Notes under the pieces: model-generated
Told to the model about the DNA's origin: nothing
Databases searched by the model: none
The model's input: the letters and a program-made list of their open reading frames with translations, nothing else
From: Serendipita indica DSM 11827
Taxonomy: Eukaryota > Basidiomycota > Agaricomycetes > Sebacinales > Serendipitaceae
NCBI GenBank assembly: GCA_910890315.1
Contig: CAJVGD010000052.1
Location: 62,001 to 126,000, forward strand
Direction: 5' to 3'
DNA length: 64,000 nt
Shown here: piece after piece, positions 17,939 to 46,763 of the stretch
Numbering within the stretch: the first letter of the stretch is position 1
Layout: the number at the start of each line of letters is the position of its first letter
Position numbers and translations under genes: made by a program

Positions 17939-20219
17939 ATGTCGTTTCTGCGACCCGCCTCGCCGAATCCACTGCAAAGAGCGAGCTCACCAATGGAAGG
18001 TTCACCTATGGACTTTAGTTCACCACCCGGGATAAGCACTTCAGGAAACAACCCCTATACAACCATGAATCCACTCTCTCGCGTAGCCCAGTCGCCGACC
18101 GCTGCACATCTACGAAACCGCACGCGCCGACCAAGTTCTCTAAGCATTGCACTCGATAGGACAAAATCATTCACCGGTTTCCCGTCTCCATCAAATATCT
18201 CGGGTGGTGGGAGTAGTAGTAGCGGTAGTCTTGGAGGAAACGGCAACGGAAATGCCGGCTCTATGCTGCAGCCCGCCGCGACGATCCAAGAGTATGGGTC
18301 GGGGGATATAGCAGGCAGAGGAAGGGCATCTTCTTCTGCTTCTTCCATGTCTATCGGATTATCACCGGCTAGGAGGAATACGAGTTTAGATGAAGTCGGG
18401 CTTGAGGCGAACGAGGAGACGCCCAACGCGAGACGGCAGACGGGCTTTGGGGCACAAGTGGCAAAGATGAAGAGATACAGGCAGATTATGGGTATGTCGG
18501 GTCCGAATGGGTCAGAGAGCGACCTTTCTACTGCATCGAATGGACGGACTACGCCGGATTTGGTCAACCAGAGAGGATTAGAGGACGACGTAGATGCCCT
18601 GGCTGTGGCCCCGGACCATAGCGTACATTCGTCACCCATGAAGGACTCGAGTCCTGCCAAATCTGCAGAGCCACTCTCTCCATTTTCTCTCAAAGGACCG
18701 GTGCGTATCCCATCATTGAACAGTTTGTGTCTGCTCACAGTACAATCAGCTCAAACCTGCGAGGCTACTCCGCGTGCAGAACGAACTCAATGCTCCCTTT
18801 CTTGACTCGGAAACAAAGTCGGAAGCCGCATTCTCTCGATTGGTCCAATCTACCTCAGATCTCGCTTCGAGACTACGCCTCACCATTTCCAACGCCGGAT
18901 CGTCCCCAGCTCGCAAGCGACAGACGCGCAACTGGATGGGCGAATGGGCCGCTTCCAATGTGAATACCGAACCCAAACATTGGGCTGGTCGGTTCCCCGA
19001 GTCTGTCGAGGGTGATGGTGAACTACCTAGCCCGGATACGGAAAGTGACGGAAGCGATCATGCAGCCGATACGACGCTCGTTGCGTCGCGGCCTTCATCT
19101 GTTATGGGCCAAGCTCCGATTGGGATACCAATCCAAGGGAGGTCAAGATCTGGTTCGACTATGACAGCGAATGGAGATATGATGCTGGTTGGAAGTTATG
19201 GAGGCAACGAGCAAGGCGAAGGATTGGCGGGCATGATGGATCTTGACATGGCCGTACGTCATTTCATCATCTTAGGTCACTACTAATCTATTCGTAGTCA
19301 AACATGAGCTCTCCGGTGTCGACACCGCTGACGACCAATTGGAGGGAACCAGCACCCTTCTTCCAATCCAAGAAGCGTAAATGTACGCTGTCGATCGTGC
19401 TTTTTCGATTGCTGATACTCATTAGTCTCAGTGACTGCGGATCAAGACAAGATTGAATATCAACCTCAAGCGAAGAAACGCAAAGGTCTCTCGCCATATG
19501 GTGCTCCGATGACCCTCCAAGCAGGCACGTCAAGCCCACTCTCCAACTCTGGGTCCGGATCTTTTGTGTTTCCACCCCCAAAGTCTCCTCTCCACTTGAA
19601 CGGTGCTTCTCTCCAATTGTCGATGACCGCCATGCCAAACGCATCGTTTGGTAGCTTTGGATTTCCTAACAACAATAACAACGGGGTGCATCAGCATCGC
19701 AAGTCGGGTTCGATCTCGATGGCATGGTCGAGGCCTGGTTCTGCTCACTCTAGCCCCCTTCTTCGTCCGACGAGCAGCCACTCGAACATGCCAGCGCCAC
19801 CGAGCGGAATGCTTCTAGGACCAACACTTCTTTCAAACAGTACGACCGCAACGCCGTCAGAGAATGGAGATGGGTTCAACTTTACGTTTTCGTCTTCAAA
19901 CGGCAGGAACATGGCAGGCGCGGCGATCAATCAGGGTACTGGAGAGAACTTTGGGCATGGAGGTGCTCCTCAGATGACACAGGGTGGTGTACAGCAAGGC
20001 TTTCCTTCGTACACACCTGGTGCGCAGCTTGGACAATACGGCGCACCCGTCACGTCAAGCCCAAGTGCGCGTCCAATGATGAAGTTGCCTACCCGCGCAT
20101 TGGGGGCAAATGGAGTTGGTTTTGGTTTTGGTGCGATCTCTCATCCGCCATCTCTTCCTGCGGGGACTCAGCAGCCACGGCTTGATGGAGGCGTTGTTGG
20201 TCTATCGCTGAACCCATAG
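17939..20219 (+). CDS. Ser/Pro-rich basidiomycete protein of unknown function (module 1 copy, whole)
   Basis: Four exons (17939-18700, 18750-19253, 19298-19382, 19432-20219) join in frame to 712 residues. I do not recognise the family. The N-terminal third is Ser/Gly/Asn-rich, with repeated SP motifs that could be proline-directed phosphosites. A folded-looking helical segment lies at the start of exon 2 (LLRVQNELNAPFLDSE, then LVQSTSDLASRLRLTISNAG). Basic clusters QSKKRK and QAKKRKG suggest nuclear import. The C-terminus is Gly/Asn/Gln/Pro-rich and disordered. This makes a nuclear regulatory or scaffold protein plausible, but that is inference. It is the only undamaged copy of a gene that recurs, decayed, at 25.87, 29.69 and 33.70 kb next to each NLR gene. 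Confidence 0.8.
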
Positions 20220-20259
20220 ATAATGTATAGACTCTAGGCCATAAAGTTGTAGAATATAC

Positions 20260-21480
20260 TGAAGGGCCCTCCGGGCGGACACCTGACCTTTATGTCCTTT
20301 GGGGCTCGACGATTTATCGTGGAATATACGTTATACACACAACTCGTGTGGGACCCCTTAGACGCTCGCAATGAACAAGGAGGAGGGGTGTGAACGAAAT
20401 AGGAGATTTCATCAGAGGCCTAAATGGCAAACAAGAGCAATCGCGCCATCTGGATCCAGGAGGAGACAGAGCACGCGGGCAGAGATTGTGAGGGGCACTA
20501 AGACTACGGGCCCAAGCCTTCAGTCCTCTTTCCCTTGATCTGCTGGAGCTCGTGCTCAGGTGCATAGAGTAAGCCGTTCGACAAAACAACGTAAGGTTTC
20601 AGCTGGTGATGCACTCACAATACTCAAGGGAGCAACGTCTCTCCTGGAAACAACAGATGCATGCAAATTCAACGGGTAACGAGTGGCATAAACGTCTCTG
20701 ACCGGTGAAACGGAGCGCAGAGGCTCGTGTGAACGACATTGGAATGCTCGAGTGGTATACAGGCAGCGCCGGCAATACCTACGGGCAGTCAGAGTAAGTC
20801 CAGGGGTATCAAGAGGTCCGACGCACCTTGAGGTGGCAAATTAGATAGCTTCACAGGAAAAAAGGTCAACGGTGAGTAGACTTCGAAGCCAAACTGAACG
20901 TGTTCGAGCGGGAGTGTTGTCTCGGGAGTGTCAGTACAGTCCATAGTGATAGGGAGAACGTACTGGTGAGAGCCTGTCGCGTGTAGCAAAACTCAATGAA
21001 TTGGGTGGGTGGCCCAGACGTTCGTCAATGTTTCCAATCAGATGAATGTGGCGAGCCAGAGTGTCGGATGCCATGGAAGCTAATGGCAGCATTGCAGCTT
21101 CCTTAGTATGCAGAAGCGTTGAAAGATACTGATAGAACCCCGAATTGTTGAGCGAAGGGTGGGCAAGATTGACTCGCCCTTCGGCATCGGTGCTAAAGTC
21201 AAGAAACCTGGAGGATAGGCCAAAAAGAGGCGGTCAGCCTGTACAATTAGCTGACAAAGGTCACTGATATGCATTGGGAGCACAAAGTGGGAGGGGAGGC
21301 CAGTAAGCTCGAGCCAGGAGAACAAAGACTTTAGGACAAAAGGTTCGAGCGGGGCTTTGAGGTGGCCGCCGCAGTTGAAAAGGAGCAAAATATTAGTTGA
21401 AAATCGTACAGATATTTCAATTACTGTGCCTTGTGAGGGCCTGCAAGTCCCTTCCCTCCACGTCGTTACGGTCAGGGGAT
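20260..21480. other. Sequence present only in the module 1 tail-to-tail junction
   Basis: In modules 2 and 4 the Ser-rich gene copy and the facing NLR are joined by about 110-120 bp. In module 1 the matching flanks (GTTGTAGAATATA near 20250 and TGAAAGTGTATCCGACATG near 21483) are separated by about 1.2 kb. I see no terminal inverted repeats and no clear target duplication. The segment holds a coding-like stretch on the minus strand (20669-21405) and, at 20314-20660, sequence where I see no supported gene. Confidence 0.55.
20669..21405 (-). pseudogene. 5-prime-truncated hypothetical gene fragment
   Basis: Four exon-like blocks on the minus strand join through plausible GT-AG introns into one frame ending at TGA 20669. 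Readable blocks include RVNLAHPSLNNSGFYQYLS, ASDTLARHIHLIGNIDER, YVLPITMDCTDTPETTLPLE, VKLSNLPPQ and IPLEHSNVVHTSLCAPFHRS. The frame is closed by a stop just upstream of 21405 with no ATG or good acceptor, so the 5-prime end seems missing. This fits a gene fragment brought in by DNA rearrangement, since introns are kept. I do not recognise the family. It could still be a whole gene with an unseen first exon. Confidence 0.4.
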
Positions 21481-21571
21481 TATGAAAGTGTATCCGACAT
21501 GTTTGTCTTATATCGTGAATAAATGCTATTTACACAAGGTTGTTCATTGTCAAGGTGATGCATGGGTGCCA

Positions 21572-24500
21572 TTATGCAGAACCCTGAAGCTGCAAAGCAC
21601 GCAGATCTTGCCGTATCCTCTCTGCCTCCTCCGTTTTGCCACAATTGTCCAAGATCCCCGCGAGGTTGTTCATGACCGCTATGGTATTGTGATGCCCTGG
21701 TCCAGATATGTCGAGCTGCAGCCTGAGCACGTCTCTCTGCATCTTCTCGGCTTCATCCAATTGACCACGATCACACAAGGTCAATGCAAGGTTGTTCATA
21801 GCCATGATGATTCCAGGATGCCGTGAACCAGAGATCTTGCGTTGCAAAGCGAGCACGTCTCGCTGCATCTTTTCGGCTTCGTCCAACTGACCACGACCAT
21901 ACAAGGTCGATGCAAGGTTGCTCATTGCGGCGATGGTGTGGGGATGGCGTGGTCCAGAGATCTCGAGTCGCAGAGCAAGCACGTCTTGCTGCATCTTTTC
22001 GGCTTCGTCCAACTGACCACGATCATGCAGGGTCAATGTAAGGTTGCTCATTGCGGTGATAGTGTCGGGATGGCGTGGTCCAGAGATCTTGAGTCGCAGA
22101 GTGAGGGTGTCTCGCCGCATCTTTTCGGCTTCGTCCAACTGACCACGATCATGCAAGGTGAATGCAAGGTTGCTCATTGCGGTGATGGTGTCGGGATGGC
22201 GTGGTCCAGAGATCTCGAGCCGCAGAGTGAGGGCGTCTCGCCGCATCTTTTCGGCTTCGTCCAACTGACCACGATCATGCAAGGTCCATGCAAGGTTGCT
22301 CATTGCGGTGATGGTGTCGGGATGGCGTGGTCCAGAGATCTCGAGTCGCAGAGCAAGCACATCTTGCTGCATCTTTTCGGCTTCGTCCAACTGACCACGA
22401 TCATGCAAAGTCAATGCAAGGTTGCTCATTGCAGTGATGGTGTCGGGATGGCGTGGTCCAGAGATCTCGAGCCGCAGAGCGAGCACGTCTCGCCGCATCT
22501 TTTCGGCTTCGTCCAATTGACCACGATCATGCAAGGTCAATGCAAGTTCGCTCATTGCGGTGATGGTGTCGGGATGGCGTGGTCCAGAGATCTCGAGCCG
22601 CAGAGTGAGGGCGTCTCGCCGCATCTTTTCGGCTTCGTCCAACTGACCACGATCATGCAAGGTCGATGCAAGGTTGCTCATTGCGGCGATAGTGTCGGGA
22701 TGGCGTCGTCCATAGATATCGAGCCCCAGAGCGAGCACGTCTCGCTGCATCTTTTCGGCTTTGTCCAACTGACCACGACCACGCAAGGTCAGGGCAAGGC
22801 AGTGCATTGTACTGATTGTATCATGATTCTCTCGTCCAAGAATCTCTAGTTGCAGAGCAAGTGTCTGTCTCTGCATCCTTTCTGCTTCACTTAATTGACC
22901 GCAACGCCACAGTGCCTCGGCGAGTTTGTTCATGACCCACATTGTGTTGCCATGCCTTTCGCCTTGCCTTTCTCGAGCTCTTTCGAGGGAATATTCTAGT
23001 AGCTCCCAACATGCCCTCCAATTCCCTAAATCATCATAGAACCCATTGAAAGCGAGTATGTGCGCTAGATTCTCTGATAGCACAGATCGAGGGATTCTGG
23101 TGGCGTGAGGAAGTAGGTGCCAAAGCGGCGCGTTGCTCCCTTCTGCTGGTCGGATTGCACCAAGTAGTAATTGTAATGCCATCCGGACGAAATCTCCTTT
23201 ATCCGCTGCCCCCAGAGAATCTTGGATATACATTTGGAGTAGAGGGTGTATGTTGTAGAATGCTCCATCCGTTGAGACATTGATAAACGATGCCTGTGCT
23301 GCCGAGTTGACAATCTCCTGGAATGCAACTTCGTCCCATGTCTCCCCAAAGATTTCCTGAAGCTTTGATATGAAATTCCTGTCACTCTCCGGCGGAGGGC
23401 AGCTTATCCGGACAGTGTATGTGGTGAAGCCGGACATTGTCGACAGCTCGAACAGCGATAGTGGAATGAGCGAGTGATGAAGGAACGCACACAGCCTCAA
23501 GAACTTCTGTGTACTGTTCGGTAATTGATGGAACGATAGGTCGAACGCAGCGTACGCCGACGACGTGTAATCTGAGCCAATATCTGGCTTCCTGCTCAGA
23601 AGTCGATTCCGATTCTTCCGCAATGTGCCGAGGTATGCGCTAAGACGTCGCGTCTGGCGAATATATGCCCCTGCTTGAGTAATCGCGAGTGCTAGCATCC
23701 CTAGTTCTTCCACAATATCCAAAGATTCAGTATCGGATACAGGTGCCACCTGAGCGACGGCGTGAAGGAGATTCACCGCCTCGCTCTTCTCAAGAGCGCC
23801 AACGAGAACCGCACCAGAAGGGGCATAGTTGATGCATTCCGCATTTCTGGTGGTGATTAAGACTTTGCCATGAGTAGAAGTAGGGAGGTATGGACGGAGG
23901 TCGAGTTTGGGTGAGTCGGCGTTGTCGATAAAGAGCAGCCATCCTTGATCTTTGTAGTCAAGATGTGCGACAGCATCCTCCCATGTCTTTTTGGTGTATT
24001 CAGGGCCTAAGCACCGGATAGACCGCTCCAAGTCCATTTCCACCTGGGATTGACTGGACGCGTCGACAAAGATCACCCGAGTAAAGCTAGCCAACGATTA
24101 GACATTCTAGGGCAGCATGTGGGACACATACCGGTCTTTGTTGGCACCAATCCAGTTTATCGCGAGCTGAGTCTTGCCTGCACCTCCAATGCCGTGTAAA
24201 ATACACCGTGGTTGATCCTTCACGGGTCTATCCGGAAGCAGTGCTTGACTGATGAGGGACTGGATATGCGTTCGCTCGATGTAGCCTCTGGACGACGGTG
24301 GACACGGCTTTGGAGAAATGATCCCCACAGAAGTGGCATCTACAAACCAGTCAGCCAAGTAGCGAAGGATGATTGACGACAAACTTCGGCAAATGTCCTC
24401 GACATCCCACTTCTTCTTCACCTCAGCAGGTGCATTCTTGACATAGTCTTGGAGATAGTGAAGAACAGTTTGATAACTGTTACTGTTTCTGGAGGTGAAT

Positions 24501-25542
24501 CTCACCATCTCGCGGTGGTCGGCAGGAAGTGGGATTGGCGTCCCATGGCGATCGCCTGCAATCACGGCTGAGTGGTATGGAACGTTCTAATTGTCTATGA
24601 GCGACTGGTTTATCATATGAACGCACCTACCAGTCCTCTTGTCGTATACTGGCCATAGAAGAAGATGCTCTCAATCGTCGTACTTGCTTGGGCATAGAGA
24701 CTCTGTACGTTCTCGAGTTCAGACGAGTTCGACCGAAGATCCTTGAGGATAATGTCTGTTGTCTCCATATATACTAACGCCAGGCGATTGACGGCTTCGA
24801 GGAGGGTAACGTCGGTGCCCGAATGCGGAGTTCCAAAGAATAGGATTGCATGAGTGGAGATGAGAATGTCTCGGAGATCACATTTAGACTCCAATGATTG
24901 ATTGTGACAGATTACCAGAGCCTTATTGCGAGTGTTTAGTGCTGGCTTGAAGTGTACCCAATGCTACGCACCCATTTGAGAATGATGCCTCCTAGATCAT
25001 GTGCAACAAAGATAATGGGTCGCTATCAATATGTTAAAACGAGTTCTCATACAAGGCGGAAGCACTGACTCGAGGAGTGACCTTGCGTTTCCTGGAAAGG
25101 GCCTTGGCGAATCCATCGGCATGCCGGCGCATCGTCTGGGTTGAGACACACTCGTGACTACGAGCATCAGCGTCGTAGCCGTATGTCAAGACTCGAGCAT
25201 TGGACAAGTCTGTGGGCAAGAAGTCGCGCAGCCATAAGCTTCCTTGATCTGTCGTCCAGGTCCTTTCTCTGTGTCCTTGCAATCCATGGATGGCGACAAT
25301 ACTGATGAGGTAGGCTCAGCTGCGGCGAACACGTGCGATAGATGGGTGTCTTACTCGACGATAGGATCAGTTCCGGAAGCAAGTTCTAGGAAGTCGAGCT
25401 GATCTGCTTTTGAGATGGGCTCCGATGTCGATGGCCTCGGGCTGTTGGAATTGGCATCCAATGTCGCGGATTTGTTTGTGTTCTTCGAAGATTTCTGAGA
25501 AGGACGGAAGACATTCCTCAAACGCGAGTGAAAACTGGACAT
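21572..25542 (-). CDS. NLR 1: hydrolase-like, NB-ARC, TPR receptor
   Basis: Multi-exon gene from ATG 25542 to the stop at 21572, about 1,200 residues or more. Parts in order: a Ser/Asn-rich lead; an alpha/beta-hydrolase-like (SesB-like) domain (IVAIHGLQGHRERTW, then HAILFFGTPHSGTD), whose nucleophile elbow reads FVAHDLGGI with Asp in place of Ser; a linker; an NB-ARC/NACHT-type ATPase with P-loop GIGGAGKTQL near 24,180, Walker B-like WLLFIDNADSP, sensor LITTRNAEC and GMLALAITQAG; a winged-helix-like part; and ten 42-residue TPR units plus a cap. Fungal proteins of this build are STAND/NLR receptors linked with non-self recognition and programmed cell death; ligand and effector here are unknown. 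It is tail to tail with the whole Ser-rich gene and head to head with the decayed copy in module 2. Confidence 0.85.
21575..22900 (-). repeat. TPR-coding tandem repeat, ten 126-bp units (NLR 1)
   Basis: Ten consecutive 126-bp units each encode a 42-residue TPR of the kinesin-light-chain kind, beginning GQLDEAEKM and containing SGPRHPDTI. A partial unit (GKTEEAERIRQD) caps the end. Units 3-8 differ at only a few codons. Variable sites cluster at residues 10-17 and at the residue after NLA or SNLA. Most units carry MSNL, while those of NLR 4 carry MNNL. Confidence 0.9.
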
Positions 25543-26015
25543 TATTCACGATTAATGGTTGGGTCCCAGGTCATTCGGTGGCCAGCGTCTAATGGCTGCG
25601 TCCAAGCCACTGAGCGGCTGTTTGCACAAGGACTTCATTCCCGACCAAAGAGCGTTGGCCGTCCTTCGCATTACGCACCGTCTGGACAAAGGCAAGCTCG
25701 AAATATTTCAGTCTTGGACCCCACATGGACATACCGACGTTCGATCCCGGGAGGGCAAGCACCGTGGACCACGTAGATGGCTTGTGCAGGCGGATATGGC
25801 GATTGAAAGTGGATATATCTGTCAACTGTGGTCCCTAGAATCATATCCTATACACTATCATCCCACTTCTCACCGAGTTCGGCAATAGAAGGCTCACCTG
25901 TCGACTATAGTTCACCACCCGGGATGAGCTCTTCAAGAATTAACCCGTATACGGCCTCGACCACACACTCCCGCGTAGCCCAGTCGCCGACTGCTGCACA
26001 TCTACAAAACCGCAT
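24693..26015. repeat. Recent segmental duplicate, copy 1 (partner 32528-33850)
   Basis: About 1.3 kb covering the NLR N-terminal exons, the head-to-head intergenic stretch and the 5-prime end of the decayed Ser-rich copy is almost base-identical to 32528-33850. The offset is a constant 7835-7836 bp. Similarity falls sharply below 24,690. This points to very recent duplication or gene conversion. Confidence 0.8.
25543..25866. promoter_or_regulatory. Head-to-head intergenic region of NLR 1 and the module 2 Ser-rich copy
   Basis: This 324-bp gene-free stretch must hold the NLR 1 promoter. It is nearly identical to 33379-33701 and weakly matched at 29.70-29.83 kb. It is not similar to the native promoter of the whole Ser-rich gene before 17939. 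The decayed Ser-rich copies therefore joined NLR-side sequence near their start codon. I see no clear TATA box. Confidence 0.5.
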
Positions 26016-28115
26016 GCGCCGACCAAGTTCTCTGAGCATTGCACTCCACAGGACAAAATCTTTCACTCATTCCCATCTCCATCAAACATATCAGGTGGAG
26101 GGAGTAGTAGTAGTAGCGGTAGCCTTGGGGAAATGGCAACGGAAATGGCGGATCTATGCAACAACCCGCCGCGACGATCCAAGAGTATAGGTCAGGGGAC
26201 ATAACATGCAGAGAAGGACGTCTTCTTCCGCCTCTTCCATGTCTATCAGACTATCACCAGCTAGGAAAAGTGCCAGTTTAGATAAAGTCATGCTGGAGGC
26301 GAAGGAGACGCCCTACGCGACAGACAGGCTTTGCCGCGCAAGTGGCAAAGATGAAGGAACCTAGGCAGACTATAGGTATTTCATCTCCGAATGGGTCTGA
26401 GAGCGACCTCTCTACTGCGTCTAATGGACGGACTACCCCAGATTTGGTCAACCAGAGAGGATCAGAGGACGACATAGATGCCCTGGCCGTGGACCCGGAC
26501 CATAGCGTACATTCGTCACCCATGAAGGACTCGAGTCCTGCGAGATCTGCAGAGCCACTCTCGTCATTCTCTCGAGCGACCGGCGCGTGGAGAATTGTTG
26601 ACCCTTTCTTTCGCTCACAGTGCAACCATCTCAAACATGCGAGGCTACTCCGCGTGCAGAACGAACTCAATGCTCCCGTTCTTGACTCGGAGACAAAGTC
26701 GGAAACCGCATTCCCTCGATTGGTCCAATCTACCTCAGATCTCTCTTCGAGACTACGTCTCACCATTTCCAACGCAGGATCGTCCCCAGCTCGCAAGCGA
26801 CAGACACGCCACTGGATGGGCGAATGGGCCGCTTCCATTGTGAATACCGAACCCAAACATTGGGCTGGTCGGTTCCCCGAGTCTGTCGAGGGTGATGGTG
26901 AACTACCTATCCCGGATACGGACATTTACGGGAGCGATCACGCAGCTGATACCACGCTCGTTGCATCGCGGCCTTCGTCTGTTGTGGGCTAAGCTCCGAT
27001 TGGGATGCCAATCGAAGGAAGGTCACGATCTGGTTCTACTATGATGGCGAATGGAGATATGATGCTAGTTGAAAGTTTTGGAGGCAACGAGCAAGGCGAA
27101 GGATTGGCGGGCATGATGGATCTTGACATGGCCGTACGTCATTTCATCATCTTATGTCACTACTAATCCATTTGTAGTCAAACATGAGCTCTCCGGTGTC
27201 GACACCGCTGACGACCAATTGGAGGGAACCAGCGCCATTCTTCCAATCCAAGAAGCGTAAATGTACGCTGTCGATCGTGCTTTTCGATTGCTGATACTCA
27301 TTGGTCTCAGTGACTGCGGATCAAGACAAGATTGAATATCAACCTCAAGCGAAGAAGCGCAAAGGTCTCTCGCCATATGGTGCTCCGATGACCCTCCAAG
27401 CAGGCACGTCAAGCCCACTCTCCAACTCTGGGTCCGGATCTTTTGTGTTTCCACCCCCAAAGTCTCCTCTTCACTTGAACGGTGCCTCTCTCCAATTGTC
27501 GATGACCGCCATGCCAAACGCATCGCTTGGTAGCTTTGGATTTCCTAACAACAATAACAACGGGGTACATCAGCATCGCAAGTCGGGTTCGATCTCGATG
27601 GCATGGTCGAGGCCTGGTTCTGCTCACTCTAGCCCCTTCTTCGTCCGACGAGCAGCCACTCGAATATGCCAGCGCCACCGAGCGGAATGCTTCTAGGACC
27701 AACACTTCTTTCAAACAGTACGACCGCAACGCCGTCAGAGAATGGAGATGGGTTCAACTTTACGTTTTCGTCTTCAAATGGCAGGAACATGGCAGGTGCG
27801 GCGATCAATCAGGGTACTGGAGATAACTTTGGGCATGGAGGTGCTCCTCAGATGACACAGGGTGGTGTACAGCAAGGCTTTCCTTCGTACACACCTGGTG
27901 CGCAGCTTGGACAATACGGCGCACCCGTCACGTCAAGCCCAAGTGCGCGTCCAATGATGAAATTGCCTACCCGCGCATTAGGGGCAAATGGAGTTGGTTT
28001 TGGTTTTGGTGCGATCTCTCATCCGCCATCTCTTCCTGCGGGGACTCAGCAGCCACAGCATGATGGCGGTGTGGTTGGTCTATCGCTGAACCCGTCGATA
28101 ATGTATAGGCTCTAG
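25867..28115 (+). pseudogene. Decayed copy of the Ser-rich gene (module 2)
   Basis: This aligns along its length with 17939-20219, keeping exon order and intron positions. The 3-prime half is almost identical; for example the last exon still encodes QAKKRKGLSPYG and the same Gly/Asn-rich end. The 5-prime third is worn: the start codon is altered, the frame is lost in the Ser/Gly-rich stretch near 26,070-26,200, and the codon matching CAA of the whole gene is TAA near 26,990. An internal reading frame (26342-26992) remains but is not a whole gene. The contrast between worn front and well-kept back suggests either a young 3-prime part or correction by conversion from module 1. Confidence 0.8.
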
Positions 28116-28224
28116 GTCATAAAGTTGTAGAATACATTCCGAAAACTATCCGACACTGTTTGTCTCATATAGTGAATAAATGCTACACAAGGACGCTCAT
28201 TGTCAAGGTGATGCATGAGTGCCA

Positions 28225-29636: not shown

Positions 29637-29689
29637 AAAATTAAATACACGATTTCAATCATTTCAAGATGCCCAACGTTTCTTAACAT

Positions 29690-29930
29690 GCGCAATGGAC
29701 GTGCTGGTGCTCGATCCCGGGAGGTACGAGTATAGTAGACGACGTAGATGGCCTTCAGGCCGAGGTGACAGTATTAGAAACATGAAATTAACTATATGCT
29801 CATAGCCTGGTCTGATACACACTATCATGCCATCCCTCCTTGCCAAAGCCACTGCGACTCGACGAGCGCAGTCGCAAATGGAAGGCTCACCCGTCGACTT
29901 TAGACCATCACATAAGTTCATTGTATAATG
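29690..29930 (+). pseudogene. 5-prime scrap of the Ser-rich gene with its NLR-side flank (module 3)
   Basis: The stretch 29,700-29,830 resembles the shared head-to-head region (a CGATCCCGGGAGG-like block, ACGTAGATGGC, and CACTATCATGCC before the start). Then 29,830-29,925 matches the first codons of the Ser-rich gene, including ATGGAAGGCTCACCCGTCGA against ATGGAAGGTTCACCTATGGA in the whole copy. The match stops soon after. It is the fourth trace of that gene and shows that module 3 once had the same layout. Confidence 0.6.
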
Positions 29931-30075
29931 CTCTATGCTCATCCGCCCTAAGCCATTCAGAAGACATGCCCGGCCTATCAAACTGAAGGAACACAGATTG
30001 TATTATCTATAATTACAAGTCTATTTCAACGATTCGTTCATGGGACTAGTGGGCTACGATCACGCCCACAGTTTC

Positions 30076-33000
30076 TTACAAATTGGGACGAGACTGAGCC
30101 GTGATGACTTCGATAAGTAGTTTCGATTGCTGAGTAATAGGGTGATCTTCGCCTAACACCTCACGGCGCATTGTCTGCGTCTCTCTCAGAAGCTGGAGAG
30201 CCTCCTCGCGCTGACCAAGAAGGCACAACGTGAAAGAGAGTGCGAATGACGTTTTGAGAGTGTCTGGGTGCCGCTGGCCGGAGATTTCGAGTCGTAAAGC
30301 AAGAGCGTCTCGCTGTAGCTTTTGTGCTCCGTCAAACTGACCAAGATCACACAAGGTAGACGCGAGATTGATCATTGCACGGATGGTACCACGATTCTTC
30401 GGTCCAAATATCTCGAGTCGTAGAGCGAGCACATCCCGTTGCATCTTTTCCGCTTCATCCAACTGACCGCGATCAGCCAAGGTGGCCCCAAGATTGCTCA
30501 TTGCAATGATGGTATCGGGATGAACTGGTCCAGATATCTCGCGTTGCAGAGAAAGCACATCTCGCTGCAACTTTTCCGCTTCTTCCAATTGACCAAGGTC
30601 CCCCAATGTCGCCGCGAGATTGCTCATGGCGACTATAGTATCAGGGTGCCGTGGTCCATACATTTCAAGCTGTAGATCAAGCATGTCTCGTTGCATTTTC
30701 TCCGCTTCTTCTAATCGACCACTCTGTTGGACGGCATTGGCAAGTTTGATCTTGACCCATGTCACGCCTTCATGTTCTTTGGCGTGGCTCAAGTGAAGTG
30801 AGGTAAGAACAGACTCTAACAGCTCCTGGCATATCGCCCAGCTTCCTATAGACTCATAAAGTGTATGGAACGCCAGTGCACAAGCCACATTCTCCGATTG
30901 TATCGACCGAGGGATACTGTTGGCATGCGGAAGTAGCTGCCAAAACTCAGCGTTGCTTCCCCATGGCCGGATTGCACCCAACAAGAGTTGTGCCGTCACA
31001 CGGCAATAACTTCTGTTATCCGTCTCGTCAAGAGAATCCTTGATATATGTCTGGAGTAGAGGATGGATCCCGTAAAATAACCCGTCCGTTGAGACGTTTA
31101 TAAACGATGCTTGTGAGGCCGAGTCGACGATGTCTTGGAACGCAAACTCGTCCCATGTATCGCTAAAGATCTCCCGCAGCTTTGAAATGAAAGCCGTGTC
31201 ACTCTCTGGCGGAGTAAAGTTCGTCCGGACTATATATGTGGTGAAACCGGACATTGTCGATTGTTTAAACAGAGTGGACGGAATGAATGAATGATGAAGG
31301 AACGCACAGAGCTTCAAGAACTCCTGCGACGTTCTCTGTAATTTATGAAATGATAAATCGAATGCGGTGTATGTCGAGGACGTGTAATCGGAGCCAATAT
31401 CTGGCTGCTTGCTCAGAAGTTGATTTCTGTGCTTGCGAAATGTCTCCAGGTAGGTGTCGAGGCGCCGCGTCTTGCGAATGTACACTCCTGCTTGAGTGAT
31501 AGCAAGTGCCAGCATCCCTAGCTCTCTCGCAATCTCCAAAGATTCGGCTTTAGATGCAGGTGCCATGCCGGCAATTGTGTGGAGGAGGTCCACCGCCTCG
31601 CTTTCCTCGAGGCCGCCAACTGGAACCGCTCCATCAGGAGCATAATTGATGCACTGAGCGTTTCTTGTGGTGATTAAAACTGACCCATGAGTCGACGTAG
31701 GGAGGTACGGACGAAGGTTGAGTTCTGGTGAGTCTGCATTGTCGACGAAGAGCAGCCATCCCTTCTCCTTGCCATCGAGATGTGCGACCGCATTCTTCCA
31801 CGTCATTTTACTATACTCGGGACCCAAGCACCGAATAGATCTCTCCAAGTCCATTTCCAGTTGATTTTGGCTGGAAGCGTCGACGAAGATCACTCGAGTG
31901 AAGCTAGTTAAAGGTCAGATCTGCTCGATTCAGCACCCAGATTATATACCGAGCTTCATTCTCTTGAATCCAGTTTGTCGCGAGTTGCGTTTTGCCAGCG
32001 CCTCCAATGCCGTGTAGTATACATCGCGGCTGATGTTTGACCGGACCGTCTGGAAGTAACTTCTGCGTGACGAGGATTTGGACATGGTTGCGCTCGATGT
32101 AGTTTCTTGAAACAGGTGGACGGGATTTTGGCAACACGGTCTCGTCAGAGGCGGGCTCCTCATTTGCAGCACCTATGGATCGATTAGATGAGTACAAAAC
32201 ATAAAATGGAGACCAACTGCGATATTTTTCCTCTTTCACCCACTTTTTCTTAACCTCCACAGGCGCATTATCGACGTAGTCTCTGAGATAGTGGAGAACC
32301 GTTTGATAGTTGTTCTTGTCTTTGGCTGCGAATCTGACCAGATTACGATGGTCGGCAGGGAGTACGATGGTTGTCGCATTACGATCGCCCGCAATTACGG
32401 CCGAGTGATACGGAACATTCTGATTGTCTATGAGCGACCATTCGCGAATATGAATATAAACTTACCAGTCCTTTTGTTGTATATCCTCCAGTAAAGAAGA
32501 TGCTGTTGATGTTCGCGCTTGCCTCGACATAGAGACTCTGTACGTTCTCGAGTTCAGACGAGTTTGACCGAAGATCCTTGAGGATAATGTCTGTTGTCTC
32601 CATATACACCGACGCTAGGCGATTGACGGCTTCAACAAGGGTAGTGTCGGTGCCCGAATGCGGAGTTCCAAAGAATAAGATTGCATGGGTGGAGATGAGA
32701 ATATCCCGGAGGTCGCATTTCGACTCCAATGATTGATTGTGACAGATTACCAGAGCCTTATCGCGAGTGTTTAGTAGCTGGCTTGAAGTGTACCCAATGC
32801 TACGCACCCATTTGAGAATGATGCCTCCTAGATCATGTGCAACAAAGATAATGGGTCGCTATCAATATGTTAAAACGAGTTCTCATACAAGGCGGAAGCA
32901 CTGACTCGAGGAGTGACCTTGCGTTTCCTGGAAAGTGCCTTGGCGAATCCATCGGCATGTCGGCGCATCGTCTGGGTTGAGACACACTCGTGACTACGAG

Positions 33001-33378
33001 CATCAGCGTCGTAGCCGTATGTCAGGACTCGAGCATTGGACAAGTCTGTGGGCAAGAAGTCGCGCAGCCATAAGCTTCCTTGATCTGTCGTCCAGGTCCT
33101 TTCTCTGTGTCCTTGCAATCCATGGATGGCGACAATACTGATGAGGTAGGCTCAGCTGCGGCGAACACGTGCGATAGATGGGTGTCTTACTCGACGATAG
33201 GATCAGTTCCGGAAGCAAGTTCTAGGAAGTCGAGCTCATCTACTTTTGAGATGGGCTCCGATGTCGATGGCCTCGGGCTGTTGGAATTGGCATCCAATGT
33301 CGCGGATTTGTTTGTGTTCTTCGAAGATTTCTGAGAAGGACGGAAGACATTCCTCAAACGCGAGTGAAAACTGGACAT
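30076..33378 (-). CDS. NLR 3: hydrolase-like, NB-ARC, short TPR receptor
   Basis: Same build and exon pattern as NLR 1, from ATG 33378 to the stop at 30076. The N-terminal exons are nearly identical to those of NLR 1. The nucleophile elbow again reads FVAHDLGG with Asp for Ser. The P-loop GIGGAGKTQL lies near 32,000, and WLLFVDNADSP and LITTRNAQC follow. It differs at the C-terminus: only five TPR units, well diverged from one another, and a different end (REVLGEDHPITQQ, then IEVITAQSRPNL) in place of the cap shared by NLRs 1, 2 and 4. It may keep an older, unexpanded form of the repeat region. Function as a recognition receptor is inferred from architecture. Confidence 0.83.
30079..30720 (-). 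repeat. Five diverged TPR units (NLR 3)
   Basis: Five 42-residue TPR units start with GRLEEAEKM, GQLEEAEKL, GQLDEAEKM, GQFDGAQKL and GQREEALQL. Unlike the arrays in NLRs 1 and 4, adjacent units differ at many positions, so recent unit-by-unit expansion has not occurred here. Confidence 0.85.
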
Positions 33379-33850
33379 TATTCACGATTAATGGTTGGGT
33401 CCCAGGTCATTCGCTGGCCAGCGTCTAATGGCTGCGTCCAAGCCACTGAGCGCTGTTTGCACAAGGACTTCATTCCCGACCAAAGAACTTTGGCCGTCCT
33501 CCGCATTACGCACCGTCTGGACAAAGGCAAGCTCGAAATATTTCAGTCTTGGACCCCACATGGACATACCGACGTTCGATCCCGGGAGGGCAAGCACCGT
33601 GGACCACGTAGATGGCTTGTGCAGGCGGATATGGCGATTGAAAGTGGATACATCTGTCAACTGTGGTCCCTAGAATCATATCCTATACACTATCATGCCA
33701 CTTCTCACCGAGTTCGGCAATAGAAGGCTCACCTGTCGACTATAGTTCACCACCCGGGATGGGCTCCTCAAGAATTTCCCGGTATACGACCTCGACCACA
33801 CACTCCCGCGTAGCCCAGTCGCCGACTGCTGCACATCTACAACACCGCAC
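32528..33850. repeat. Recent segmental duplicate, copy 2 (partner 24693-26015)
   Basis: Nearly identical to 24693-26015 across NLR N-terminal exons, head-to-head intergenic DNA and the first codons of the decayed Ser-rich copy, with only scattered substitutions and single-base indels. The neighbouring ATPase and TPR parts of NLRs 1 and 3 are much more diverged. Confidence 0.8.
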
Positions 33851-35527
33851 GCGTTGACCAAGTTCTAAGCATTGCGCTCGATAGGACCATGGCAAGTCTT
33901 TCACCGGTTTCCCATCTCCATCAAATATCTCAGATGGTGGGACTAGTAGTAGCGGTAGTCTTGGAGGAAATGGCAGCGGAAATGGCGGATCTATGCAACA
34001 ATCTGCCGCGACGATCCAAGAGTATAGGTCAGGAGACATAACAGGCAGAGGAAGGGCGTCCTCTTCCGCCTCTTCCATGTCTATCGGACTATCACCGGCC
34101 AGGAGGAGTACAGGTTTAGATGAAGCCGGGCTCGAGGCAAACAAAGAGACGCCCAACGCGAAACGACAGACAGGGTTTGCCGTCCAAGTGGCGAAGATGA
34201 AGAGATATAGACAGATCATGGGTATGTCGGGTCCGAACAGGTCAGAGAGCGACCTCTATACTGTGTCGAATGGGCTGCTTCCAATTCAGATATCGAACCC
34301 AAGCATTGGGCTGGTCGGTTCCCCGAGTCTGTCAAGGGGTGATGGCGAACTACCCGGCCAGGATACGGAAAGGGAGGGGAACGATCATGCGAGTGATAAT
34401 TATAAGACGCTTGTTGCCTTCGTCTGTTCTGGGCCAAGCTCTGATTAGGATGCCGATCCACGAAAGTTCCCGATCAGGCTCAACTATGACGGCGAATGGA
34501 GATATGATGCTGTTTGGGGATTATGGAGGCAACGAGCAAGGTGAAGGATTGGCAAGCGTGGTGGATCCTGACATGGCCGTATGCCGTTTCATCATCTCAA
34601 GTCACTACTAATCTACTCATCGTCAAACATGAGCTCTCCAGTGTCGAGGCCGCTGACGAATTGGAGAGAACCAGCCCCTTTCTTCCAATCCGAGAGGCGT
34701 AAATGTATGCTGCCGATCGCTCTTTTTCGATTGCCGATACTCATTAGTCTCAGTGACCGCGGATCAACATAAGATTGGTTATCAGCCTCGAGCAAAGAAA
34801 CTAAACGTATGGTGCTCCGACGACTCTCCAAGCGGGCACGTCAAGCCCACTCTCCAACTCTGCATCTAGATCATTCTTATTCTCACCACCAAAGTCTACA
34901 TTCATTTGAACGGTGCCTCTCTCCAATTGTCGATGACAGCCATGCCAAACATATCGTTTGGCTGCTTTGGGTTTCCCAATAACAACAGTAACAGACTCCA
35001 TCAGCATTCCAAGTAGAGTTCGATATCTATGGAGTGGCCCAGGCCCGGTTCTGCTCGCTCTGGTCCTTTCCTGCGTCCGACAAGCAGTCATTCAAGCATG
35101 CTAGCGCCGTCGAGTGCAATGATTTTAGGACCAAACCTTCTTTCAAAAAGTACGGCCGCAACGCCATCGGAGAATGGAGACCGGTTCAACTCTACATTTT
35201 CGTCTACAAACGGCAGGAACATGGCAGGCGTGGCTATCAACCAGAATAGTGTAGAGAACTTTGGGTATGGGGGTTCTCAGATGGCACAAGGAAAGTGCAC
35301 AACAGAGACTCGCTTCATAAGCGCCTGGTATACATCTCGGACAATACGGCGCACCCGTCACATCGTGCCTCAGTGCTCGTCCGATGATGAGGTTGCCTAC
35401 CCGCGCTGTGGGGGCAAACGCAGTTGATTTTGGTTTTGGTACAATGTCTCATCCACCGCCACATGCTGCAGGGACTCTGCAGCCACGGCTTGATGGCGGT
35501 GTTATTGGTCTATCGCTGAACCCTTAG
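33702..35527 (+). pseudogene. Decayed copy of the Ser-rich gene (module 4)
   Basis: This can be aligned with 17939-20219 from its start region to its last codons, but it is more worn than the module 2 copy. Stretches such as QVAKMKRYRQIMGMSGPN and the intron 3 region are still clear. A large part of the exon 1 to exon 2 region is missing (the sequence passes from the GMSGPN block almost directly to the region matching 18940). Several frame breaks and stop codons occur in the last exon. It ends 122 bp from the stop of NLR 4, tail to tail. It is unlikely to make a full protein. Confidence 0.8.
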
Positions 35528-35649
35528 GTGATGCATAGGCTCTGGCTTGCAACGTTGTAGAATATATTACGAAAGTCTACCCAACATTGTTCGTCTCATA
35601 TACTGTAGTAAATAAATGCTATACAAGGACGCTCATTGTATGAGTGCCA

Positions 35650-38600
35650 TTACCCAGAACCCTGAAGCTGCAAGGCACGCACATCTTGCCGTATCCTCTC
35701 CGCCTCCTCCGTCTTCCCGCAATTATCCAAGATCAACGCGAGATTGTTTATTACCGTATTGGTATCGGGATGCCCTGATCCAGAGAACTCGAGCCGCAGA
35801 GCGAGAACGTCTCGCTGCATCTTCTCGGCTTCGTCCAACTGACCACGACCACGCAAAGTCTCCGCGAGGTTGTTCATTGCCATGATTGTGCCGGGATGCC
35901 GTGGTCCAGAGATCTCGAGCCACAGAGCGAGCACGTCTCGCTGCATCTTTTCGGCTTCGTCCAACTGACCACGATCACGCAAGGTCCACGCGAGGTTGTT
36001 CATTGCCATGATGGTGTCGGGATGCCGTGGTCCAGAGATCTCGAGCCGCAGAGCGAGCACGTCTCGCTGCATCTTTTCGGCTTCGTCCAACTGACCACGA
36101 TCACGCAAGGTCATGGCAAGGCAGTGCATTGCAGCGATGGTGCCAGGATACCGTGGTCCAGAGATCTCGAGTCGCAGAGCGAGCACGTCTCGCTGCATCT
36201 TCTCGGCTTTGTCCAACTGACCACGACCACACAAGGTCGCCGCGAGGTTGTTCATTGCCATGATGGTGTCGGGGTGCCGTGGTCCAGAGATCTCCAGCCG
36301 CAGAGCGAGCGCGTCTCGCTGCATCTTCTCGGCTTCGTCCAACTGACCACGATCATGCAAGGTCCACGCGAGGTTGTTCATTGCCATGATGGTGTCGGGA
36401 TGCCGTGGTCCAGAGGTCTCGAGCCGCAGAGCGAGCACGTCTTGCTGCATCTTTTCAGCTTCGTCCAACTGACCACGACCGCGCAAGGTCGCCGCGAGGT
36501 TGTTCATTGCCATGATGGTGTCGGGATGCCGTGGTCCAGAGATCTCGAGCCGCAGAGCGAGCACGTCTCGCTGCATCTTCTCAGCTTCGTCCAACTGACC
36601 ACGACCACGCAAGGTCCACGCAAGGTTGTTCATTGCCGTGATGGTGTCGGGATGCCGTGGTCCAGAGATCTCGAGCCGCAGAGCGAGCGCGTCTCGCTGC
36701 ATCTTCTCGGCTTCGTCCAACTGACCACGACCATGCAAGGTCCACGCGAGGTTGTTCATTGCCATGATGGTGTCGGGATGCCGTGGTCCAGAGATCTCGA
36801 GCCGCAGAGCGAGCACGTCTCGCTGCATCTTCTCGGCTTCGTCCAACTGACCACGACCACGCAAGGTCGCCGCGAGGTTGTTCATTGCCACGATGGCGTC
36901 GGAATGCCGTGGTCCAGAGATCTCGAGCCGCAGAGCGAGTACTTTTTGCTGCGTCGTCTCCGCCTCCTCCAGCTGCCCTCGGCTATACAAGATCGATGCA
37001 AGGTTATTCATTGCCGTGATCGTGTCTGGATGTCGGTCTCCAGAGACCTTGAGCCGTCGAGCAAGTAGGTCTCGCTGCAGTTTTTCTGCTTCTTCCCATT
37101 GACCGCAAGATCGAAGGGTTTCGGCAAGTTTCGTGTCAATGTACATTGATTCTTCATGCCCTTCGTCTTGTATGAGCTGGAGAGCCGCCTGAGCAGACTG
37201 CAGTAAGTCCCGACACGCAGTCCAACTCCCTAGAGAGTCGTAAAGCGTGTAAAATGCCAATACGTGTGCCACGTCCTTTGATTGTACTTGCCTCGGAATG
37301 CTGTTGGCGTGAGGAAGGAGTTGCCAAAGCTGAGCGTTATTCCCATCTGGTGGCCGGATTGCCCCGAGGATAAGTTGTGCTGTCACGCGGCAATAATGCT
37401 CATTCTCCAATCCAACAAGCGAGTCCTTGATATAGGTCTGAAGTAGAGGATGGACAGTGTAGAATAGCCCGTCTGTCGAAACGTCGATAAACGACGCTTT
37501 TGAGGCGGAATCAACTATTTCTTGGAACCCATCTGCGTCCCATGTCTCGCCAAAAACTGCTTTTAGCTTTGATATGGACCTCTGATCACTCTTTGGCGGA
37601 GGGCAGCTTTCCAGAACCGTGTAGGTAGTGAAACCAGATCCTACAGATCGCTCAAAAAGAGAGAGCGGAATGAGTGAATGATGGAGGAACGCGCATAGCT
37701 TCAGGAACTCCTGTGGTTTTGTCTTTAGTTTCCGGAATGATAGGTTGAAAGCAGTATAGGTCGAGGATGTATACTCGGACCCAAACTCTGGCTTCCTTCT
37801 CAAAAGGCGCCTCCGACTCTTCCGAAAAATGTCGAGATAGTCTTCGAGGCGCCGCGTGGCGCGAATGTAGACCCCTGCCTGAGTAATTGCAAGCGCCAGC
37901 ATCCCTAGCTCCCTTACTATCTCCAAAGATTTGGCATCGGATGCAGGGGTGACTTCTGCGACTTTGTGAAGGAGGCTGAGCGCTTCAGCCTCCTCGAGGG
38001 GGCCAACAGGGACTGCTCCATCGGGAGCGTAGTTAACGCTTTTATTGTTCCTTGTAGTAAGCATGACCGCTCCATGAGTGGATTTTGGGATGTAAGGGGT
38101 AAGATCGAGGTCTGGTGCGTCCGCGTTGTCGAGGAAGAGTAGCCATCCCTTCTCTTTGCCCTCCAGGTACGCGATGGCATCCTTCCAGCTCATCTTGCTG
38201 TATTCGAGGCCTAAGCACCGAATTGACCGCTTTAAGTCCATTTCCAACTGAGTTTTACTGGAGGCGTCGACGTATATCACCCGAGTAAAGCTAACCAAGG
38301 ATTAGACATTCTTCAGCGGCGTTCGATGTTCGCACCGGGTTTCATGTTCCTGGATCCATTTCAATGCAAGCTGTGTTTTTCCTGAGCCTCCTATCCCGTG
38401 TAATATACATCGTGGTTGACGATCCGTGGGTTGGGCCGGAAGCAAGTTCTGCGTGATGAGGGACTGAACATGTGTTCGTTCGATGTACATTCTCCACGCA
38501 GGTGGGCAGGATTTTGGAAACATGGACACCTCAGAGACCGGCTCTTCCTTTGCAGCGCCTGCGTATCTATCAGACAAGTATTGAGCATAGAGAAGCTACC

Positions 38601-39741
38601 GACTGCGGCGATTATCCTCCGTAAACCACCTTTCTTTTATGTCCTCCACGGCATTTTCAACGTAGTCCTTGAGGTACTGAAGAACCGTTTGATAATTGTC
38701 GTTCGCTTTGACTGAGAATTTGACCATATCACGAAGGGAGGCGTGGAGGACAATCGCTGCGGGGTTTCGATTGCTCGAAGTTGAGAAATCCTACAGGTAC
38801 ATAAGCGGGGCGGTCTTGAATACGAGTACGCCTACCAGACTTCCAGCCGCATATTCTCCACACAAGAATGTGCTGTTGATGTCCGCGCTTGCCTCGACGT
38901 AGCGACTTTGTATGTCCTCTAACTCAGATGAGTTAGATCGGAGATCCTTGACCATGACGTCTTTCGCCCCTATGTACATCGAAGCCAAGTGACTAATGGC
39001 CTCAAGAAGGGAGACTTCGATACCGAAATCTGGGGTTCCGAAGAATAAGATTGCTTCGGTGGAGATCAGAATGTCTCGGAGCTCGCATTTCGACTGCAGT
39101 GTCTGATTGTGACAGAGTGCCAGGGCCTTTTCGTGGATGTTAGGAGCTCACTCGAAGGGGATTAAAGCATCACGTACCCATTGGAGAATGATACACCCTA
39201 AATCATGTGCTAGAAAGATGATGGGTCGCTACCAATGTATTAACCGATATCCAATTAGGGCGGATGCACTCACTCGAGGATTCCCCCTGCGCGTTCTCGC
39301 GAGCGCCCAGGCGAACCCTTCGGCGTGCCGGCGCATCGTCTGAGTTGATACACACTCGGGGCTACGAGTATCGGCGTCATATCCATATGTCAAGATTCGA
39401 GCATTGGACAAGTCGGCGGGCAGGAAGTCACGCAGCCACAGGGTTCCGCCGTCTGTCATCCATGTATTCTCTCTGTGACCCTGTAATCCATGGATTGCGA
39501 CAATACTGACGAAGGAAGCTCAGTGTCAAGTACGTGGGAGGTCCTAAATAACTTACTCGACGATAGGATCCGTGCCAGAAGCAAGCTCTAGGAATCCAAG
39601 GTGATCCACTTTTGATCCTGACGTCGGCTTCGATTGGTCAATGCTAGTGGAATCGACCTGCGGCATACATACCTTCACCTTGCACAAGGAGACTTTAAAG
39701 GGACACACGAGATTCCTAAAACGTGAGCCAATATGAGGCAT
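35650..39741 (-). CDS. NLR 4: hydrolase-like, NB-ARC, long TPR receptor
   Basis: From ATG 39741 (MPHIGSRFRN) to the stop at 35650. Same order as NLR 1: alpha/beta-hydrolase-like N-terminus, NB-ARC-type ATPase (P-loop GIGGSGKTQL near 38,385; WLLFLDNADAPD; LTTRNNKSVN; GMLALAITQAG), and eleven 42-residue TPR units plus the shared cap. The nucleophile elbow is AHDLGC, so the catalytic Ser is Asp here too and a following Gly is also changed. The N-terminal exons are clearly more diverged than those of NLRs 1 and 3, which suggests an older split or lack of conversion. The first residues differ from the MSSFHSRLRN start of the others. Role as an intracellular recognition receptor is inferred. Confidence 0.84.
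35653..37104 (-). repeat. TPR-coding tandem repeat, eleven 126-bp units (NLR 4)
   Basis: Eleven 126-bp units, each a 42-residue TPR, with units 3-10 near-identical. The residue after NNLA changes from unit to unit (A, W, W, A, W, A, then W, E), and the two residues before the closing Arg switch among HG, RG, HD, CG and RD. Almost all units share MNNL. The array and that of NLR 1 both begin at the same residue of the last large exon. Confidence 0.9.
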
Positions 39742-45540: not shown

Positions 45541-45880
45541 ATCCGTGCGGACGCGAGCGAGCTTTGAAGCTCACTTTGCGGCGGTAACTTATCTTCTCTG
45601 TCTTTCTTTTCGCGTGAATCTTTGCATAATTATCCTGTATCACGAACTCTCTTTATCACAAAGCATACCTTCTTTTTGACACACGTCGAACCCCTCACTA
45701 AATGTCCACCAAACTGATGCAAAATGGTGGATACATAAGAAAGCACCGTATTTATTACTAAAATGTTAAATACTGGTTGACCTGGTTCATTGATGGAGCT
45801 GGGAACCGCGGTCTTCTGGACTATTGAAAAGGTAAACCTCCGGTCGAGAACTTTCGGTGGTAATAAGGTATATCCATATT
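45541..45880. other. 3-prime flank of DUF4436 gene 1
   Basis: About 340 bp after the stop of gene 1. It includes a 3-prime stretch (near 45,600-45,650) that resembles sequence after gene 2 (CTTTGCATAATTATC in both), consistent with whole-gene duplication including the 3-prime end. No gene seen. Confidence 0.5.
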
Positions 45881-46709: not shown

Positions 46710-46763
46710 GCCGTCACTCCGCGGGTTTCTCACCCATCCCCCCGTATCCTCCTCCTTCCCATC

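What the first reader, a model, noticed from the sequence alone, without database searches (positions are those of the whole stretch)
17939..39741. Four tandem copies of a Ser-rich gene plus NLR module
Seen: the Ser-rich gene or its remains occur four times (17.94, 25.87, 29.69, 33.70 kb) on the plus strand, each followed by an NLR gene on the minus strand (21.57, 28.23, 30.08, 35.65 kb). The order is always the same, tail to tail, and neighbouring modules meet head to head. The unit of duplication is therefore the pair, not the receptor alone. Known: fungal STAND/NLR genes are often clustered and fast-evolving. Inference: this is a receptor locus that grows by copying a module whose founding partner was a unique Ser-rich gene.
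Basis: partly seen in the sequence, partly recalled or inferred. Interest (0 to 1): 0.8.

Follow-up and report, generated by a model that had tools for sequence, protein, structure and literature searches.

The report
Receptor gene array carrying dead neighbour copies
In a root-dwelling fungus, a cluster of immune-type receptor genes has been copied together with pieces of an unrelated neighbouring gene; the pieces look like dead passengers, while the receptors keep swapping parts with each other and with relatives elsewhere.

Summary
In detail: four Ser-gene copies (one intact, two degenerate, one ~85-bp stub) alternate with four NLR genes (three intact, one truncated) at the stated places. 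The genome is Serendipita indica. The NLRs are alpha/beta-hydrolase - NB-ARC - TPR proteins. A fifth Ser remnant, between NLR scraps in the same order, lies 71 kb further on.

Shared junctions show that Ser and NLR DNA was copied together. But the pair is not what is kept. Only Ser A is intact; B and D have 7 and 9 frameshifting exon indels. NB-ARC regions are about two to six times more diverged at fourfold sites than the Ser copies. NLR A groups with Ser-less NLRs outside the array; one clade of array NLRs is rejected (p = 0.00045). Three Ser-less relatives lie 5-17 kb left of the window. A 98.4%-identical tract (77% around it) shows recent exchange between modules.

Best reading: a known kind of NLR cluster diversifying by block exchange, with a bystander gene's remains as passengers, perhaps homology anchors.

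The parts
17939..20219 (+). Ser A: the only intact Ser-rich gene found; exons 17939-18700, 18750-19253, 19298-19382, 19426-20219; 714 aa with KKRK stretches, no Pfam domain
   Evidence: Spliced model equals database protein P0001 at 713 of 714 residues; homologues in Serendipita sp. 399 and 396; no Pfam family at E up to 1
20258..21490 (.). Dispersed 1.23-kb repeat between Ser A and NLR A, absent from modules B and D
   Evidence: 36 matches in the genome, 9 of them at or near full length including itself; spacer comparison
21572..25542 (-). NLR A, 7 exons, 1228 aa: alpha/beta hydrolase - NB-ARC - TPR (10 units counted by pattern)
   Evidence: model
25543..25859 (.). Head-to-head spacer A|B
   Evidence: region 25413-25874 is 98% identical to 33249-33709, the only other place the DNA search found
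25860..28134 (+). Ser B, degenerate: 7 frameshifting exon indels, one in-register stop, ATG changed to ATC
28135..28224 (.). Tail-to-tail junction of module B; homologous junctions in modules A and D
   Evidence: DNA search with 28125-28345: 3 matches in the genome, A, B and D
28225..29654 (-). NLR B, pseudogene: no hydrolase or P-loop match, frame broken between 28.58 and 28.76 kb
29695..29911 (+). B|C spacer remnant (29695-29826) and Ser C stub (29827-29911)
30076..33378 (-). NLR C, 7 exons, 1004 aa, 4 TPR units counted by pattern, family-type C-terminus
   Evidence: 99.9% identical over 1004 residues to P0014
33379..33694 (.). Head-to-head spacer C|D
33695..35566 (+). Ser D, degenerate: 9 frameshifting exon indels including a 404-bp deletion, 3 in-register stops
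35650..39666 (-). NLR D, 7 exons, 1244 aa, 10 TPR units counted by pattern
   Evidence: 99.4% to P0028 over 850 aa
24887..26007 (.). Recently exchanged tract (NLR A hydrolase exons, spacer, Ser B 5' end); partner at about 32722-33840
   Evidence: 98.4% identity over 1120 bp against 77.0% over 1204 other aligned bp; score 886 against a maximum of 104 in 1000 shuffles (windows)

Best explanation
A cluster of fungal NLR receptor genes formed beside a unique, unrelated Ser-rich gene. Shown by sequence: in A, B and D an NLR whose C-terminus ends in an unusual short TPR unit lies tail to tail with Ser (junction 1), and in A|B, C|D and decayed in B|C an NLR head region adjoins the start of Ser (junction 2); shared junctions mean that blocks of Ser plus NLR DNA were duplicated. 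A fifth, badly decayed block lies 71 kb away on the same contig. The carried Ser copies have decayed; only Ser A is intact and conserved. Shown: different parts of one NLR have different nearest relatives (NLR A: hydrolase end like NLR C, NB-ARC end like Ser-less NLRs at C50:54.8 kb and C11, C-terminal tail like B and D). Inferred: the pieces are exchanged by gene conversion or unequal crossing over, with the similar 126-bp TPR units and the duplicated Ser/spacer DNA as homology. Inferred from the NLR family, not tested: intact NLRs A, C and D are intracellular sensors whose TPR face binds the trigger and whose N-terminal hydrolase-fold domain signals; Ser A has no part in that.
For: Blocks. 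Gene models; NLR C equals P0014 at 99.9%; Ser A equals P0001 at 713 of 714. Junction 1: 3 places in the genome, A, B, D; junction 2: 2 places by DNA search plus a decayed copy; fifth block. Decay: 7 and 9 frameshifting exon indels. Fourfold-site divergence, Ser against NB-ARC: A-B 0.15 (0.11-0.19) against 0.85 (0.61-1.26); A-D 0.43 (0.33-0.56) against 1.16 (0.85-1.72); B-D 0.25 (0.15-0.36) and 0.45 (0.31-0.59) for the two halves against 0.96 (0.71-1.38). Tree: NLR A with C50:54.8 kb and C11, 100/99; array NLRs plus their database copies as one clade p = 0.00045. Segment relatives of NLR A: exon 2 99% to C, 71% to C50:54.8 kb; exon 7 73% to C, 81% to C50:54.8 kb. Exchange tract. Database protein P0007 of S. 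indica DSM 11827: 93% to NLR A over 934 aa, its last 76 residues identical to NLR D. Fold: hydrolase, CED-4-type NB-ARC, KLC-type TPR.
Against: The first 175 residues of the hydrolase are as diverged between A and D (fourfold 0.45, 0.27-0.74) as the Ser copies (0.43), which simple pair duplication predicts; it is the rest of the NLR that is older. The fifth remnant is again a Ser piece between NLR pieces, which favours copying of the pair as a block. Ser D does not look fully neutral: third codon positions differ 2.4 times as often as positions 1 and 2 and fourfold K is 3.5 times K at positions 1+2, so it may have been under coding constraint for part of its life. Introns give a lower neutral estimate for A-D (K 0.17, 87 sites) than fourfold sites (0.43). 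The B/C/D grouping is weak (81/47); held together with their copies it is itself marginally rejected (p = 0.047). No population data, no expression data for Ser B, Ser D or NLR A; the other nucleus's haplotype could not be read.
Confidence: 0.72

Rival explanations
1. Simple pair duplication: the Ser-NLR pair is the unit; all modules descend from one pair by tandem duplication, and the older look of the NB-ARC region has some other cause, such as fast change.
For: Shared junctions; a fifth Ser/NLR remnant in the same order; Ser A-D and hydrolase aa 1-175 A-D have the same fourfold divergence.
Against: Fourfold sites, not only amino acids, are older in NB-ARC; dN/dS over the pre-TPR part is low, 0.19-0.23 for the three pairs of A, C, D; NLR A groups with Ser-less NLRs; NLR C has a different C-terminus.
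Confidence: 0.15
2. Functional pair: Ser is the guarded partner or decoy of the NLR, as SEC-9 is for PLP-1, and the extra Ser copies were working variants before they decayed.
For: Tail-to-tail linkage in A, B, D; excess of third-position change in Ser D.
Against: Three of four array Ser copies are broken or a stub while three of four NLRs have intact models; the family is large and mostly away from Ser; in the listing none of the 4 named Serendipita sp. 399 relatives has the 23.6-kb contig of that species' Ser homologue (120 of 506 hits were listed).
Confidence: 0.07
3. Assembly artefact: repeats from the two nuclei of a heterokaryon were stacked into one false tandem array.
For: S. indica was judged most likely a heterokaryon (PMC3192844, section 8); TPR units are similar and hard to assemble.
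Against: NLRs A, C and D differ by 27-30% in DNA over exon 7, far above 2.6 SNPs per kb; separate records match C, D and Ser A.
Confidence: 0.04

Closest known systems
Fungal NLRs of the sesB-like/NB-ARC/TPR architecture (e.g. Podospora anserina Pa_2_10340; passages of PMC4986451)
   Same: Hydrolase-fold N-terminus, NB-ARC, KLC-type TPR units that resemble each other within a gene and vary in number (10, 4 and 10 counted here)
   Different: Array members carry Asp instead of Ser at the nucleophile elbow; A, B and D end in a short TPR tail joined to Ser DNA
[quoted passage not shown]
   Same: Physical clustering, exchange tracts, a pseudogene, relatives on the same contig
   Different: A bystander gene was duplicated along with the receptors and left as remains; in that paper 16 of 272 Sordariales clusters consisted of paralogous copies
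[quoted passage not shown]
   Same: A non-NLR gene beside an NLR
   Different: Partner copies are dead here and the relatives seen elsewhere have no Ser beside them; no amyloid motif or SNARE was looked for

Membership tests
Fungal NLR, sesB-like/NB-ARC/TPR | NB-ARC domain with intact P-loop | tested here: met
Fungal NLR, sesB-like/NB-ARC/TPR | N-terminal alpha/beta-hydrolase fold | tested here: met
Fungal NLR, sesB-like/NB-ARC/TPR | C-terminal superstructure-forming TPR units | tested here: met
   TPR_10/TPR_12 far above cut-off; match to P. anserina repeat structure 4y6w
Fungal NLR, sesB-like/NB-ARC/TPR | High internal repeat conservation (over 85% over at least 100 aa, definition in PMC4986451) | tested here: inconclusive
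   Mean unit-to-unit amino-acid identity over all counted units 71.9% (A), 54.4% (C), 83.5% (D); best DNA pairs 97.6% in A and in D; the paper's exact statistic was not computed
Active SesB-like serine hydrolase | Ser nucleophile in the GHSLGG-type elbow (motif from recall) | tested here: not met
   AHDLG(G/C) in A, C, D; of the 120 listed hits, which include copies of array members, 61 Ser, 18 Asp, 9 Asn, 6 Gly, 1 Cys, 25 without the motif; D149 of P0014 lies between strand 143-148 and helix 150-163
NLR with a role in cell death or allorecognition | Triggered cell death | not testable with these tools
   needs an experiment
Linked functional NLR-partner pair | Partner kept intact beside the NLR | tested here: not met
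   1 of 4 Ser copies in the array intact; the fifth remnant is a stub too
Linked functional NLR-partner pair | Linkage conserved in related species | tested here: inconclusive
   Only names and contig lengths in the listings; no related contig could be read
Tandem array by duplication of one unit | Copies share the same junctions | tested here: met
   Junction 1 in A, B, D; junction 2 at A|B, C|D and decayed at B|C
Tandem array by duplication of one unit | All parts of the unit tell the same history | tested here: not met

The most novel reading that the evidence does not exclude
The dead Ser copies are useful DNA: by repeating a stretch of unique sequence at NLR heads and tails they give the cluster homology anchors, so that receptor heads and tails can be exchanged in blocks between modules; a bystander gene thus became the recombination scaffold of an immune-receptor locus.
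Probability: 0.22. Interest if true: 0.62.

Novelty: new member of a known kind. Interest (0 to 1): 0.42.

Why it matters
One fungal survey gives 274 NLRs for this species, the top of its range (PMC4986451 passage), yet how such sets grow is mostly inferred from counts. This locus carries its own markers: remains of a unique gene show which DNA moved together, so block duplication, decay and later exchange can be told apart. It also warns that a gene standing next to an NLR four times over need not be its functional partner.

Tried and rejected
Pair duplication as the whole story: disfavoured. A Ser 5' breakpoint at codon 15 (first guess from the BLAST start 17982): rejected, because Ser C, D and the fifth remnant align to Ser A at or before its ATG; in the 18 bases before the ATG 10-11 agree with Ser A, in 60 bases 19-22. 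NLR C keeping its native 3' untranslated region: not supported; the flank alone (best 24.0 bits) scores no better than 20 shuffles, so only its coding C-terminus is claimed. Synteny by locus tag: the search with the right-flank DUF6533 gene listed no row named Serendipita sp. 399 among the 120 shown of 387, so the ancestral order stays open. Inverted ends on the 1.23-kb element: none seen by eye. End of contig C11 as a haplotype copy of C50: 985285-990683 matches C50:53061-57582 at 92-96%, but the match starts inside the fetched stretch; an ectopic copy is likelier, not settled. The 4-row AU test (p = 1.5e-6) is not relied on, since identical database rows lay outside the group. Paper searches; in these listings no paper on this locus was seen (one search returned none); most subscription journals are not held.
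Full report
What was checked. The window is G000:C50:62001-126000 of a 24.7-Mb genome in 55 contigs. Database proteins named Serendipita indica DSM 11827 match it: 518 of the 519 residues of P0002 lie in exact 12-mers of the Ser B reading frames, P0028 is 99.4% identical to NLR D over 850 residues, and the contig length listed for P0002 (249035) equals that of C50. So the organism is S. indica, a plant-root mutualist.

The observation. The window compared with itself gives the Ser/NLR blocks. Ser A-Ser B align at 91.6% over 2279 columns, Ser A-Ser D at 84% and 81% in two pieces. The Ser remnant near 29.69 kb needs a sensitive search: 29695-29832 matches the spacer upstream of Ser D (66%, E 1.3e-8 against the window) and 29834-29911 the start of Ser A (70.5%, E 6.6e-7). 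The four NLRs are on the minus strand with low ends 21572, 28225, 30076 and 35650.

Genes. Ser A has four exons and 714 codons and equals P0001 at 713 of 714 residues. P0001 comes from a 2360-base contig whose source is marked lgn (taken, from recall, to be assembled public read sets); since its protein runs on over three introns of the genome it should stem from spliced RNA (inference). The search gave 6 hits: P0001, the S. indica record P0002, Serendipita sp. 399 and 396, and two unnamed records. Ser B has 7 and Ser D 9 frameshifting exon indels, with 1 and 3 in-register stops; one of the indels of Ser D is a 404-bp deletion. NLR A (1228 aa), C (1004 aa) and D (1244 aa) each have seven exons and six introns of 44-53 bases. 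NLR C equals P0014, an lgn record, at 99.9% over 1004 residues, which confirms the splice model and implies transcription. NLR B shows no hydrolase or P-loop match and its frame is broken.

Where else Ser occurs. The DNA search finds 4 places, all in the array. The protein search finds 17 pieces, 16 in the array and one at C50:173025-173132 (E 8.9e-5). Read closely, C50:173001-173197 matches Ser A from 20 bases before its ATG (68.6%, E 2.7e-22); 172678-172738 matches the start of NLR A and C (69%, E 0.002), and 173322-173419 matches NLR TPR tails (best E 1e-4), all in the order and orientation of the array; the best of 20 shuffles reached E 0.016. The NLR pieces are marginal one by one; the Ser piece is not. 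It is a fifth, decayed block, 71 kb beyond NLR D, and no other NLR match was found in C50:126001-186000.

Junctions. The tail junction (28125-28345) occurs three times in the genome: modules A, B and D. There the NLR ends in a short TPR unit (LDN.GKTEEA.RIRQD.RALQLQGS); NLR C instead has a C-terminus of the kind seen in several relatives, and its coding tail matches three NLRs left of the window.

Discordant histories. At fourfold sites Ser A-B differ by 0.15 (0.11-0.19; 0.25 in the 5' half, 0.06 in the 3' half) and NB-ARC A-B by 0.85 (0.61-1.26); Ser A-D 0.43 (0.33-0.56) against 1.16 (0.85-1.72); Ser B-D 0.25 (0.15-0.36) in the 5' half and 0.45 (0.31-0.59) in the 3' half against 0.96 (0.71-1.38) (all 28 NB-ARC pairs of 8 genes were computed, the three with a Ser counterpart are quoted). 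Against my reading, hydrolase residues 1-175 of A-D give 0.45 (0.27-0.74), equal to Ser. A tree of 64 rows puts NLR A and P0007 with C50:54.8 kb and C11:987 kb (100/99), apart from B, C and D. Held as one clade, the array NLRs with their database copies are rejected (p = 0.00045). Five groupings were tested: 4 rows 1.5e-6 (confounded by identical rows), 7 rows 0.00045, B/C/D with copies 0.047, A/B/D with copies 1.5e-101 as printed, A/C with copies 1.8e-5. By segment, NLR A exon 2 is 99% identical to C and 71% to C50:54.8 kb, exon 7 73% to C and 81% to C50:54.8 kb.

Exchange. Between the A|B and C|D head regions a tract at 24887-26007 is 98.4% identical over 1120 bp, against 77.0% over the other 1204 bp; the segment score is 886, the largest of 1000 shuffles 104. 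Ser A-B have a tract of 1419 bp at 96.5% against 83.7% over 854 bp (score 782, shuffle maximum 301). TPR units of A and D resemble each other (mean 82.0% DNA) as much as units within A (80.7%), less than units within D (89.1%), and TPR DNA at the C11 end is 88-90% identical to that of NLR D although exon 7 is 72%. P0007, a DSM 11827 protein, is NLR A-like at the head (3 differences in the first 500 residues), departs towards the TPR side, and its last 76 residues are those of NLR D. The sequenced strain was judged most likely a heterokaryon with two distinct nuclei, with 2.6 SNPs per kb (PMC3192844, section 8 read), so P0007 may be the other nucleus's allele; a chimera of an older assembly is not excluded.

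Neighbourhood. Three Ser-less NLRs of the family lie at C50:44.6-57 kb on the plus strand, 5-17 kb before the window. Left of Ser A is a Fig4/SAC-type phosphatase gene. The hydrolase part matches 204 exon-sized places in the genome (149 of 240 candidates scored).

Comparison with print. Passages of PMC4986451 describe sesB-like/NB-ARC/TPR NLRs, repeat-number polymorphism, and 274 NLRs in P. indica. [quoted passage not shown] Passages of PMC10197012 describe NLR-partner systems. The locus fits the known kind; the carried-along gene remains and the block mosaic are its particular features.

Verdict. Ser and NLR were copied together as DNA, but the receptor, not the pair, is what is kept and reshuffled.

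Noticed in passing
G000:C50:172678-173419 (locus L038, 2678-3419), 47 kb beyond the window: Fifth Ser remnant (about 197 bp) between an NLR head scrap and an NLR tail scrap, in the order of the array; most like the B|C stub
   Followed up: yes
G000:C50:44600-57000 (left of the window; loci L026, L027): Three Ser-less NLRs of the same family on the plus strand; the one at 54.8 kb is 98% identical in exon 7 to one at the end of contig C11
   Followed up: yes
NLR A, C, D, hydrolase elbow (residue 149 of P0014): Asp replaces the expected Ser nucleophile; the elbow residue varies (Ser, Asp, Asn, Gly, Cys) across relatives, as if catalysis were dispensable or changed
   Followed up: partly
window 20258-21490: Dispersed 1.23-kb repeat with full and internally deleted (about 710 + 77 bp) forms, 36 matches in the genome, no inverted ends seen by eye
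   Followed up: partly
window 43950-50060: Three tandem related stretches (71-77% DNA identity in the pieces), another tandem family next to the NLR array
   Followed up: no
window 4974-10755, minus strand: Pieces of what looks like a large signalling gene or genes: GAF and histidine-kinase parts and an AAA ATPase part
   Followed up: no
Ser D (33695-35566) against Ser A: Third codon positions differ 2.4 times as often as the other two although Ser D is broken, a hint that the copy was translated for a while
   Followed up: partly
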